37,794 bases of DNA, taken from Nitrospirota bacterium (GTDB taxonomy: Bacteria; Nitrospirota; Thermodesulfovibrionia; Thermodesulfovibrionales; UBA6898). This document shows, piece by piece, positions 2-37,794 of this stretch (the stretch's first letter is position 1; the number at the start of each line of letters is the position of its first letter). Below the pieces are notes generated by a model that saw nothing but the letters and a program-made list of their open reading frames with translations, made no database searches and was not told the origin of the DNA. The stretch lies in the NCBI GenBank assembly GCA_021811105.1, contig JAJZPM010000038.1, positions 1-37,794 of the forward strand. The letters are read 5' to 3'. Position numbers and translations under genes: made by a program.

Positions 2-124
2 GCAATCAAGGAGTATCTGGAAAATCATAATCAGAATCCTCGGGTATTTTCATGGACCGCTCCAGCAGAAAAGATTCTGACCAAAATAGCTAAATGTAAA
101 GAAGCGTTGGAGACACTACACTAG
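2..124 (+). CDS. IS630-family transposase, C-terminal end (partial)
   Basis: An open frame enters from the left edge and ends at TAG 122-124, giving 40 residues. The tail contains YLENHNQNPRVFSWTAPAEK followed by a short Lys-rich helix. This matches the usual end of IS630/Tc1-type DDE transposases, where 'HN.NP..F.WTA.AE.IL.K' is a recurrent signature. The catalytic DDE residues would lie outside the window. The following ~190 bases are AT-rich and carry no clear gene; an IS end should lie just after the stop, but I cannot define the terminal inverted repeat without the other end. The family call is from recognition of the tail only. Confidence 0.6.
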   Translation, partial: AIKEYLENHNQNPRVFSWTAPAEKILTKIAKCKEALETLH

Positions 125-35765: not shown

Positions 35766-36320
35766 ATGTCAGGATTCGCATATGGGCTGCTGAAGCCGCT
35801 GAACAGGGACTATTTCCTGCTTGCGCTGTCTATCTGGCTGTTCGCAGCGGCTTGCACTTCCGGACCGGCGACCGACAAAGGGAAATTCACGGAATTGGCC
35901 CGGGAGGCTGGGGCGCTGAAGACCTCGCTCGCAGCAGGGGCCTCCTACCCGCAGTTTTCGGAGTCGCTGCACAAGTTTTCGACTCAGATAGCTTTTCTCC
36001 GCGCCAAAACGGCAACTAAAGAGGAGAAAGACCTTTTGGACGCCTACGCTGATCTACTCGCGATCTATCAGGATGGGCTGGTGCTGTGGAGGTACAAACT
36101 GGAGTTTGCCCCGTTCGGGTTTGTCCCCAAGGGAAGCATCTACGTGGGGCAGGATGTCGATCCTATTGTCCTCAAATACCGGTTCACGACGCAATCCCAT
36201 CTTTATCAGCCGACAAAACAGTACTGGAAGAGCATTCCGGACGACTCGATTCAGATAATCTGGGGTAACGCCGATTCGCAGCTTAAGATCATAGAGAATA
36301 TGATGAGGTATCAGGGATAG
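35766..36320 (+). CDS. Putative lipoprotein of unknown function
   Basis: The protein has 184 residues. The N-terminus has a hydrophobic segment (FLLALSIWLFAAAC) ending in a lipobox-like AAAC at residue 30, so it is probably lipidated. The rest is helical ('TELAREAGALKTSL ... HKFSTQIAFLRAKTATKEEKDLLDAYADLLAIYQDGLVLWRYK' in parts) with a C-terminal region ending 'DSQLKIIENMMRY'. No family is recognised. No good ribosome site precedes ATG 35766. It is flanked by the glnA terminator and the repeats at 36425, so it is a single gene. Confidence 0.7.
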   Translation: MSGFAYGLLKPLNRDYFLLALSIWLFAAACTSGPATDKGKFTELAREAGALKTSLAAGASYPQFSESLHKFSTQIAFLRAKTATKEEKDLLDAYADLLAIYQDGLVLWRYKLEFAPFGFVPKGSIYVGQDVDPIVLKYRFTTQSHLYQPTKQYWKSIPDDSIQIIWGNADSQLKIIENMMRYQG

Positions 36321-36424
36321 AAGACCGCGTTTTCCTCGCACCATGCGCCGTCCCTTTGTCTGTTGGCCCGGCTACTGGTTTTCTCTTATGAAAGTGTAAG
36401 TTTGTTTTAACTGATAGTCCTCAC

Positions 36425-36443
36425 ATTTTATCATTGATAAAAT
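36425..36443. promoter_or_regulatory. Palindrome upstream of the ORF6N gene
   Basis: ATTTTATC-ATT-GATAAAAT is a perfect 8-base inverted repeat 60-78 bases before ATG 36503, a good candidate operator. Confidence 0.4.
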
Positions 36444-36506
36444 TCGCGGATTACTGGTAAAAATATATACCATGAAAATCGGGGAAAAGAGGGATCGGGG
36501 AAATGA
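36434..36506 (+). repeat. Imperfect direct repeat, left copy
   Basis: This copy and the one at 37072-37140 share GATTACTGGTAAAAA, then ACCATG, then GGGGAAA and AGAGGG at nearly the same spacing. The left copy runs into the ORF6N start codon. Both contain a TGGT...ACCA inverted repeat. Confidence 0.65.
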
Positions 36507-37021
36507 ATAAACTTATACCAGCCGAGATTATTGAAAAAAAGATTCTGCTCATTCGCGGTGAAAAAGTGATGTTGGATGCTGATCTTGCAGAGCTTTACGG
36601 AGTCACAACAAAGAGACTCAATGAACAGGCAAAAAGAAACAGTGATCGGTTTCCCGCTGACTTTATGTTTCAACTGACAGCTGAAGAAAAGGCCGAGGTG
36701 GTCGCAAAATGCGACCACCTTAAACAATTGAGGTTCTCGCATGTTTTTCCCTATGCATTTACGGAGCATGGAGCAATAATGCTCGCCTCAGTCTTGAACA
36801 GTCCTATCGCTGTACAAACCAGTGTTCAGGTCGTCAGGGCGTTCGTCAGGCTGAGGCAAATGCTTGCCTCGAATGCGGAACTGGCCGGAAAACTTGCGGC
36901 GCTCGAAAGGAAATACGATTCACAGTTCAAGGTGGTTTTTGACGCGATACGGCAATTAATGGAAGGGTCGGATAAAAAGATGAAGGTAATAACGGGCTTC
37001 AAGAAGGGGAAGGATTTATAG
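36503..37021 (+). CDS. ORF6N-domain (KilA-N-associated) protein
   Basis: The protein has 172 residues. The ORF6N domain covers ~1-95: 'PAEIIEKKILLIRGEKVMLDADLAELYGVTTKRLNEQAKRNSDRFPADFMFQLT', then 'FPYAFTEHGAIMLASVLNSPIAVQTSVQVVRAFVRLR'. The C-terminus (~125-172) is a helix plus a Lys-rich end. This family is common in phage and mobile DNA and is thought to bind DNA; its role in bacterial chromosomes is not settled. GATCGGGGAA may serve as a poor ribosome site. It is bracketed by two imperfect 60-70 base direct repeats, suggesting a mobile cassette. Confidence 0.88.
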   Translation: MNKLIPAEIIEKKILLIRGEKVMLDADLAELYGVTTKRLNEQAKRNSDRFPADFMFQLTAEEKAEVVAKCDHLKQLRFSHVFPYAFTEHGAIMLASVLNSPIAVQTSVQVVRAFVRLRQMLASNAELAGKLAALERKYDSQFKVVFDAIRQLMEGSDKKMKVITGFKKGKDL

Positions 37022-37032
37022 CAAGCATGTAG

Positions 37033-37069
37033 TGGCACGGCGTGCCGTGTCCAGAATCATCTTTTTTTT
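37033..37069 (+). terminator. Probable terminator after the ORF6N gene
   Basis: CACGGC (37036-37041) and GCCGTG (37044-37049), with outer TGG/CCA pairing, form a compact hairpin; a run of eight Ts follows after ten bases. Confidence 0.5.
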
Positions 37070-37071
37070 CG

Positions 37072-37140
37072 TTGATTGAATCCGCCGATTACTGGTAAAA
37101 AATCACCATGGAAATTGGGGAAAGAGGGCTCGAAAAGTGA
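37072..37140 (+). repeat. Imperfect direct repeat, right copy
   Basis: This copy matches 36434-36506 as described there, with a two-base gap near the ACCATG and a one-base gap in the purine-rich end. It is not followed by a gene at the same offset: the ATG within it opens only a short frame. Confidence 0.65.
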
Positions 37141-37226
37141 CAAACAGAGCGCATCAGGGGACGATCAAAGACCTTACAATTAATCTTTCGGCAGAAAATG
37201 GGACGCTCCTGTGTTAAAATGGCGAT

Positions 37227-37550
37227 ATGCCGGAAGATAATTCCAAATTGGTCTATTCGACGGGGAGCGCGGTTCCGAGAAAGGAGAAGCCGGCTAATCG
37301 CAATTCTACGGCGGCCGCAGGCCCGGCAAAATCCAGAACGATCATACGCCTCGATCGGAAGGGCAGGGGCGGCAAGTCAGTGACCATGATAGAGGGTTTG
37401 CGGATTTCGGCTAAAGACGGCGAAAAACTCCTAAAACAATTAAAGGCAAAGCTCGGTACAGGTGGAACCCTTAAGGACGGCTCGCTCGAAATCCAGGGAG
37501 ACCATTGCGATGCAGTCATGGCCGAGTTGACCAGAATTGGCTACGAATAG
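37227..37550 (+). CDS. yciH: SUI1/YciH-family translation factor
   Basis: The protein has 107 residues. A flexible N-terminal tail (~1-40) leads to the SUI1 domain (~45-107): 'DRKGRGGKSVTMIEGL', 'LLKQLKAKLGTGGTLKDGSLEIQGDH', 'ELTRIGYE'. It resembles eukaryotic eIF1 and E. coli YciH, which affects initiation fidelity and stress responses. There is no Shine-Dalgarno; TAAAAT at 37215-37220 lies so close to ATG 37227 that a leaderless mRNA is possible. The stop codon falls inside a perfect hairpin. Confidence 0.9.
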   Translation: MPEDNSKLVYSTGSAVPRKEKPANRNSTAAAGPAKSRTIIRLDRKGRGGKSVTMIEGLRISAKDGEKLLKQLKAKLGTGGTLKDGSLEIQGDHCDAVMAELTRIGYE

Positions 37551-37587
37551 GCGTCATTCTGCAACTGCCGCAGCAGAATGACGCCTA
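37548..37587. repeat. Perfect 15-base hairpin at the yciH stop codon
   Basis: TAGGCGTCATTCTGC (37548-37562) and its exact complement (37573-37587) flank a 10-base loop. No T-run follows, so a terminator role is uncertain; it may be a dispersed palindromic repeat. Confidence 0.6.
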
Positions 37588-37686
37588 GAAATATATAGCG
37601 GATCAGGATGGGGAAAAGATGGAACGAAGAGTGACGAATGGAGGGTATCGGGGAAAAATCAAGAAGAAAGACCTGATAATCATATA

Positions 37687-37768
37687 AAGGCACCTCCTGG
37701 CATATCGGATGATCGCTCATCTGATATGCTGTGGGAAAGAGCTCAACCTTTACCCACGGAGGTGCCTT
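37687..37768 (+). ncRNA. Three-way-junction RNA-like structure before the transposase start
   Basis: An outer stem AAGGCACCTCC/GGAGGTGCCTT (37687-37697 with 37758-37768) encloses two hairpins: GCATATCGGATGA/TCATCTGATATGC (37700-37729, one G-U) and GTGGG-AAAG/CTTT-CCCAC (37731-37757). The right outer strand contains the GGAGG ribosome site of the gene starting at 37769, so folding would hide it. No known riboswitch class fits. Confidence 0.55.
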
Positions 37769-37794
37769 ATGAAATTGTACGCAGCTTTCGATTT
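37769..37794 (+). CDS. IS110-like transposase, N-terminal start (partial)
   Basis: ATG 37769 follows GGAGGTGCCTT and reads MKLYAAFD to the window edge. This resembles the common IS110-family start 'MK.YAA.DLHS', with Asp as the first catalytic residue of its RuvC-like domain. Only eight residues are visible, so the call leans on the structured leader and on the assembly ending here. Confidence 0.45.

What the first reader, a model, noticed from the sequence alone, without database searches (positions are those of the whole stretch)
37687..37768. Branched RNA structure hiding the transposase ribosome site
A long stem and two internal hairpins form a three-way junction whose closing strand is the ribosome site of the IS110-like gene. 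It could stop translation from read-through transcripts, as in some IS elements, or be part of the structured RNA known from IS110 elements (bridge RNA lies upstream of the gene in the IS110 group). The short hairpin loops do not look like the guide loops described for bridge RNAs.
Basis: partly seen in the sequence, partly recalled or inferred. Interest (0 to 1): 0.65.

Follow-up and report, generated by a model that had tools for sequence, protein, structure and literature searches.

The report
Jumping gene that hides its start
The start of this RNA-guided jumping gene folds into a branched RNA that hides the ribosome site of its own enzyme, and dozens of distant relatives keep that fold and also keep a promoter, written inside the enzyme's first codons, that probably makes an opposing RNA, so two layers of self-restraint look like a shared trait of a large part of the group.

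Summary
Confirmed: 37687-37768 is the leader of a transposase gene (ATG 37769) and folds into a three-way junction (-50.3 kcal/mol, z -9.2) whose closing strand carries the Shine-Dalgarno 37758-37762. The window holds only the left ~121 bp of the element, because its contig ends there; relatives show the rest. It is an IS1111-group member of the IS110 family, starting at 37674/37675. Its guide RNA lies downstream of the gene: the downstream guide matches each element's own insertion site (5-nt match 154/190, shuffled 77±6.5, 0/20000). So the leader is not the bridge RNA.

RBS hiding is conserved: in 75 diverged leaders the two arms change together (0/20000 shuffles), inner hairpins covary, and most leaders pair their SD. 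The predicted circle-junction promoter would start transcripts at the stem's first base, so the structure is not only a read-through guard.

New here: an antisense sigma70-like promoter inside codons 2-12, in the same place in most relatives. It exceeds synonymous shuffles in 61% of genes (0-7% in 17 other gene windows). The predicted antisense RNA starts at the stem's other end. ISPpu9 and antisense reads over an IS110-type transposase 5'UTR in P. aeruginosa PAO1 are precedents. Expression is untested.

The parts
37586..37673 (+). Host DNA left of the element: 88-bp dispersed repeat, ending in the target flank AAGAAAGACC
   Evidence: 98% identical, uninterrupted copy at C31:102830-102917 in the same genome, which runs on past the insertion point
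37674..37680 (+). Left terminal extension TGATAAT of the IS1111-group element (first base may be 37675, with T37674 the shared crossover base); GATAAT 37675-37680 is the -10 of the circle-junction promoter
   Evidence: All relatives share the sequence from here; TTGACN in the right end lies 16-19 nt away in 46 of 48 predicted circles, or one base less if T37674 is the shared base
37681..37691 (+). Left subterminal inverted repeat (sTIR) CATATAAAGGC; its last 5 bases are also the first bases of the RBS-hiding stem
   Evidence: LE/RE repeats change together between elements, e.g. CATATAGAGGGCA at both ends in L024 and L027
37687..37697 (+). 5' arm of outer stem (AAGGCACCTCC, anti-SD); predicted start of the circle-junction transcript at 37687
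   Evidence: Fold; arm covariation in 75 leaders, own 23.7 vs 19.6±0.36; start predicted 7 nt after GATAAT
37699..37730 (+). Inner hairpin 1
   Evidence: 9 of 11 pairs of its main helix show changes on both sides, 86% of cells paired
37731..37757 (+). Inner hairpin 2
   Evidence: All 9 pairs show some two-sided changes; 54-77% of cells paired
37758..37768 (+). 3' arm of outer stem, containing the SD GGAGG (37758-37762)
   Evidence: Fold and SD pairing probability 1.0
37769..37794 (+). First 26 bases of the IS110-family (IS1111-group) transposase gene, cut by the contig end
   Evidence: Reads MKLYAAFD; full 339-aa relative L018, PF01548+PF02371, NF033542
37774..37779 (-). -10 element (TACAAT on the minus strand) of a conserved antisense promoter; its -35 (TTGAAT, 17 nt away) would be at about 37797-37802, beyond the window
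   Evidence: L022 shows TTGAAT-17-TACAAT; same position in most of 71 relatives; exceeds synonymous shuffles only in this part of the gene
37687..37767 (-). Predicted antisense RNA over the whole leader, start about 37767; its 3' end is not predicted
   Evidence: Inference from promoter position; the antisense strand also folds into a three-way junction

Best explanation
The feature is the left-end leader of an IS1111-group insertion sequence of the IS110 family. Shown by sequence: the leader RNA folds so that the transposase SD is the closing strand of a stem, and this is kept by compensatory change across the family. Inferred: translation of the recombinase is therefore very low both in read-through mRNA and in mRNA from the promoter formed when the ends join in the excised circle, because that transcript is predicted to begin at the stem's first base. 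Shown by sequence: codons 2-12 carry a conserved antisense sigma70-like promoter. Inferred: it makes an antisense RNA that starts at the other end of the same palindrome, covers the SD, and acts as a second brake (like RNA-OUT of IS10), less likely as an opener (like Asr9 of ISPpu9).
For: Fold z -9.2. Alignment-free arm test 0/20000, with distinct paired arms such as GGCACCTCC/GGAGGTGCC, GACACC/GGTGTC, GGCTCC/GGAGCC, AGCTCC/GGAGCT, GCAAGCC/GGCTTGC. Pair counts on 26 leaders: 68 two-sided cells vs 36±5, and 78.6% paired vs 39-48% when slid. Mean SD pairing above 0.8 in 54 of 72 leaders. In one clade the RBS stem lies far from the terminal repeat yet is kept. Junction promoter geometry in 48 loci. 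Antisense promoter: 61% of 57 genes at p<0.05, against 0-7% in 17 other windows of the same genes; Ser11 TCA is the most codon-conserved of 153 columns, z 27. Precedents: mutations weakening the ISPpu9 leader raised expression 26-fold (PMC8450116); six loci with antisense sRNA-seq reads over the 5'UTR of an IS116/IS110/IS902-family transposase in PAO1 (PMC3349714).
Against: No RNA or reporter data for this element. Some leaders do not hide the SD in the computed fold (L054, L055, L058, L093), and shuffled leaders, which keep their C-rich composition, also pair the SD fairly often (mean 0.65 vs 0.82). The outer stem hardly varies within the nearest clade, so its covariation rests on distant relatives. 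Permutations do not correct for relatedness. The promoter matrix is approximate and from general knowledge, and sigma70-type -10/-35 usage in Nitrospirota is assumed. The antisense promoter is weak or absent in a plasmid relative read (L102). The full element is taken from another species of the same genus.
Confidence: 0.75

Rival explanations
1. Read-through guard only: host transcripts entering from the left carry the structure, while the element's own promoter starts inside the 5' arm and so makes an unhidden RBS, as textbook accounts describe for IS10 and IS50.
For: A same-strand host gene (37227-37550) ends about 120 bp upstream with no terminator-like site found in 37000-37794; the structure forms in the longer read-through RNA. 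A second possible -10 (TATAAA, 37683-37688) would start transcripts near 37695, inside the arm.
Against: GATAAT, not TATAAA, is the -10 kept in all clades, at a near-constant distance from TTGACN in the right end; the predicted start is then 37687, outside the arm.
Confidence: 0.15
2. The leader is the bridge RNA / seekRNA.
For: It is a structured RNA at the end of an IS110-family element, and IS110-group elements carry theirs upstream (PMC11208160; PMC11187229).
Against: The downstream noncoding region holds the guide that matches each element's left flank; the leader is ~95 nt with loops of 4 and 8 nt; lengths and loops are not conserved.
Confidence: 0.02
3. The palindrome is a DNA signal at the element end (part of the sTIR read by the recombinase), and RBS pairing is a by-product.
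For: The 5' arm overlaps the sTIR by 5 bases in the window's clade.
Against: In the GACACC clade (L051-L062, L074, L090) the RBS stem lies about 100 bp from the sTIR and is still kept with compensation; inner hairpins also covary.
Confidence: 0.06
4. The antisense RNA opens the structure and activates translation, as proposed for Asr9 of ISPpu9.
For: Same general layout: leader burying the RBS plus an antisense promoter reaching into the first codons (PMC8450116).
Against: In ISPpu9 the antisense -10 overlaps the RBS, so that RNA starts upstream of it; here the -10 lies in codons 2-4, so the RNA would cover the SD itself, which favours inhibition.
Confidence: 0.25
5. Codon conservation in codons 2-12 reflects a DNA site or an mRNA structure, not a promoter.
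For: Only computation supports a promoter; the TTGAAT -35 is not the best consensus.
Against: Two hexamers at a 17-nt spacing, -10 with T1 A2 T6 kept, third base of the variable codon 2 is A in 54 of 57 (21% elsewhere), no similar sense-strand signal; antisense reads seen over an IS110-type transposase 5'UTR in PAO1.
Confidence: 0.2

Closest known systems
ISPpu9 of Pseudomonas putida (IS110/IS492 family), PMC8450116
   Same: Transposase leader folds to bury the RBS (tested with lacZ fusions); an antisense RNA is transcribed over the leader from a promoter reaching into the first codons.
   Different: ISPpu9 has a 244-nt 5'UTR and an internal tnp start; its antisense -10 overlaps the RBS and Asr9 is reported to activate. 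Here the leader is ~82 nt from the predicted junction start, is a three-way junction, and the antisense RNA would cover the SD.
IS1111-group elements with downstream seekRNA/bridge RNA (ISEc11, ISPa11; PMC11187229, PMC11208160)
   Same: sTIR near both ends, short left and right extensions, guide region downstream of tnp, promoter formed at the circle junction, DEDD transposase of ~340 aa.
   Different: In the passages read, these papers do not describe RBS hiding or an antisense promoter in the first codons.
Antisense sRNAs SPA0004-8 and SPA0066 of P. aeruginosa PAO1 (PMC3349714)
   Same: Small RNAs antisense to the 5'UTR of a six-copy IS116/IS110/IS902-family transposase.
   Different: Found by sRNA-seq, not tested further by the authors; the leader structure was not described in the passages read. 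That this is ISPa11 is my recollection, not tested.
RNA-OUT of IS10 (named in PMC3349714 and PMC8450116)
   Different: Different transposase family; IS10 was not compared by sequence here.

Membership tests
IS1111 group of the IS110 family | DEDD transposase with Transposase_20 C-terminal domain, about 340 aa | tested here: met
   339 aa; PF01548 3.7e-15, PF02371 1.4e-10, NF033542 1.5e-50; nearest solved structures IS621 and ISCro4. Full gene read in L018, same genus; the window has only 8 codons.
IS1111 group of the IS110 family | Subterminal inverted repeats at both ends (usually 11-13 bp) with about 7-bp left and 3-bp right extensions | tested here: met
   12-13 bp perfect in L024, L027, L028, L043; imperfect or offset by one base in others, including L022, the window's near relative
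IS1111 group of the IS110 family | Long noncoding region with target guide downstream of tnp | tested here: met
   About 400 nt downstream region; guide matches own left flank in 38 loci, 0/20000 permutations
IS1111 group of the IS110 family | Promoter formed where the ends abut in the circle | tested here: met
   TTGACN-16..19-GATAAT in 46 of 48 predicted junctions; sequence only
IS110-group bridge RNA in the left end | Guide-bearing structured RNA upstream of the recombinase gene | tested here: not met
   Left noncoding end ~95 nt, no guide; guide is downstream
ISPpu9-type leader control | Leader structure that buries the tnp RBS | tested here: met
   (computed; no reporter assay)
ISPpu9-type leader control | Antisense RNA over the leader | tested here: inconclusive
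   Conserved antisense promoter by sequence; RNA not observed for this element
ISPpu9-type leader control | Antisense promoter -10 overlapping the tnp RBS | tested here: not met
   -10 lies in codons 2-4, 37774-37779
ISPpu9-type leader control | Long (244-nt) 5'UTR with an internal tnp promoter | tested here: not met
   Only ~95 bp between element end and ATG
RNA-OUT type inhibitor | Antisense RNA that covers the ribosome site and lowers transposase translation | not testable with these tools
   Predicted start covers the SD; effect needs an experiment

The most novel reading that the evidence does not exclude
A large part of the IS1111 group shares a two-promoter leader: the circle-junction promoter and a promoter written into codons 2-12 fire towards each other from the two ends of one palindromic structure, giving two RNAs that both begin AAGGCACCUCC. 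The antisense RNA acts in trans as a copy-number brake on an RNA-guided recombinase.
Probability: 0.4. Interest if true: 0.65.

Novelty: new variant of a known kind. Interest (0 to 1): 0.52.

Why it matters
IS110/IS1111 recombinases are programmable, RNA-guided DNA-rearranging enzymes, yet how these elements hold their own expression down has, in the papers found here, been studied in one case (ISPpu9). If right, RBS hiding plus a codon-embedded antisense promoter is a shared rule in relatives spread over several phyla. It would also explain an unusual constraint: short stretches that serve at once as DNA end signal, anti-SD arm and transcript start, and codons that serve at once as coding sequence and antisense promoter. 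It gives a direct bench test and warns that native leaders may suppress expression when such elements are built into tools.

Tried and rejected
Other copies in the own genome: none; only the first 26 bases of the gene are present. Rfam: no real match in 36000-37794. The leader as bridge RNA: rejected by the guide/flank test. A stand-alone promoter near the leader: the scan of 37000-37794 found none close to it, as expected if the -35 comes from the other end of the circle. A possible T-run after the antisense stem as its terminator in the GACACC clade was looked at only by eye; the script stopped part-way, so no claim is made. Literature searches for an earlier description of RBS hiding or antisense control in the IS1111 group found only ISPpu9 and the PAO1 sRNA survey; most subscription papers are not in the library.

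Full report
What is there. The stretch 37687-37768 is the leader of a gene starting at ATG 37769 with MKLYAAFD; the contig ends 26 bases into that gene. Folded as RNA, it forms an 11-bp outer stem (37687-37697 with 37758-37768) enclosing two hairpins (37699-37730, 37731-37757). The energy is -50.3 kcal/mol against -21.4±3.1 for dinucleotide shuffles, z -9.2. The same junction is kept in a 245-nt fold with upstream sequence. The SD GGAGG (37758-37762) is wholly inside the closing strand.

What element it is. The own genome holds no other part of the element, but four relatives in the same genus or family carry the leader: two at 98-99% and two at 82% identity. The one in G001 (L018/L022, 'Nitrospirae bacterium WY3.bin57') is complete: a 339-aa transposase with PF01548 and PF02371 and NCBIfam IS110, then about 400 nt of noncoding sequence. 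All four begin at the same point, TGATAATCATATAAAGGC. The own genome holds an uninterrupted copy of the host repeat into which the element is inserted, which diverges from the window at the same place. So the left end is 37674 or 37675 and the left noncoding end is only about 95 bp.

Where the guide RNA is. In the downstream region each element has a stretch before TGATT(G/A)G that matches the host sequence just left of its own TGATAAT. In 38 loci the last five positions agree 154 times of 190, against 77±6.5 when guides are dealt out at random, 0 of 20000. The guide is thus downstream, as in the IS1111 group (PMC11187229; PMC11208160). The two ends carry sTIRs that change together from element to element, perfect over 12-13 bp in several. 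In 46 of 48 predicted circles TTGACN of the right end and GATAAT of the left end lie 16-19 nt apart, one base less if the shared T is counted once. This is the junction promoter known for the group. The leader is therefore not the bridge RNA.

Is RBS hiding real and kept? Eighty relatives were fetched from bacteria and one archaeal bin. Without any alignment, the best stem between each leader and its own last 18 bases was compared with the stem using another element's last 18 bases: 23.7 against 19.6±0.36, 0 of 20000, for 75 leaders less than 85% alike. The arms exist in many paired forms, e.g. GGCACCTCC/GGAGGTGCC, GACACC/GGTGTC, GGCTCC/GGAGCC, GCAAGCC/GGCTTGC. On 26 nearer leaders the named structure has 68 cells with two-sided change against 36±5 and a covariation score of 0.190 against 0.128±0.010; sliding the partners nearly halves the paired cells. 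Hairpin 1 covaries best. Mean SD pairing exceeds 0.8 in 54 of 72 leaders; two inner hairpins are usual near the window's clade and one in more distant ones. A few leaders do not hide the SD. In the GACACC clade the RBS stem lies some 100 bp from the sTIR, so it is not a by-product of the terminal repeat. A similar stem is seen by eye in plasmid relatives at 45-47% and even 32% identity.

Where transcripts would start. With GATAAT as -10, the start is about 37687, the first base of the stem. This is inference from spacing. It implies that both circle-derived and read-through mRNAs carry the whole structure, so the read-through-only model is not favoured.

An antisense promoter in the first codons. 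In the window's relatives the minus strand shows TTGAAT-17-TACAAT (or TATAAT, TATAGT) in codons 2-12, in the same place in most of 71 genes. Against shuffles of synonymous codons from the same gene, 61% of 57 diverged genes exceed the 5% level in codons 2-18, with 6.1 bits of excess, while 17 other windows of the same genes give 0-7% and no excess, and the sense strand gives little. Among 153 conserved codon columns, Ser11 (TCA, inside the -35) is the most constrained, z 27, with His10 (CAT), Gly6 and Tyr4 also high. The third base of codon 2 is A in 54 of 57 genes. Ser11 and His10 lie outside all peptide patterns used to fetch the loci, so the fetch did not create this. The predicted antisense RNA would start at about 37767, the other end of the palindrome, and would itself fold into a three-way junction. 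It would cover the SD, which points to inhibition.

How it compares. ISPpu9 is the closest tested case: its leader buries the RBS, weakening mutations raised expression 26-fold, and an antisense RNA covers the leader, although there it is reported to activate (PMC8450116). In P. aeruginosa PAO1, six loci gave small-RNA reads antisense to the 5'UTR of an IS116/IS110/IS902-family transposase (PMC3349714). What seems new here is the generality, the mirror-image layout with two predicted starts at the two ends of one palindrome, and the promoter written into the coding sequence. This is a new variant of a known kind.

Limits. All evidence is comparative sequence and computed folding. Relatedness is not corrected for in the permutations. 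The promoter matrix is approximate. The rest of this very element is unread because the contig ends.

Noticed in passing
L057, downstream of tnp; L056 similar by eye: The guide region carries two tandem modules with different guides. In L057 the second (TCTTTTTT) fits the element's left flank (TACTTTTT) better than the first (GATTATTT): possibly a natural double-guide element.
   Followed up: partly
window 37550-37585: Long perfect hairpin GGCGTCATTCTGC...GCAGAATGACGCC at the stop codon of the 37227-37550 gene; related palindromes occur at the starts of contigs C52 and C13 (L003, L004).
   Followed up: no
window 37586-37673; L002, L005; L017 flank: 88-bp dispersed repeat (..TAGAAATATATAGCGGATCA..) used as insertion site; by eye, the flank of the relative in L017 belongs to the same repeat family.
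   Followed up: partly
L051-L062, L074, L090 leaders: In this clade about 100 bp of extra sequence lies between the element end and the RBS stem; its role is unknown.
   Followed up: no
window 37227-37550: Small gene whose C-terminal half looks like a SUI1/YciH-type translation factor (by eye), same strand as the element, ending about 120 bp before it: a possible source of read-through.
   Followed up: no
G145 (L110, L116, L118-L122): One genome of the same phylum carries seven copies with identical match scores of a 49% relative: a good place to compare insertion sites and leader changes.
   Followed up: no
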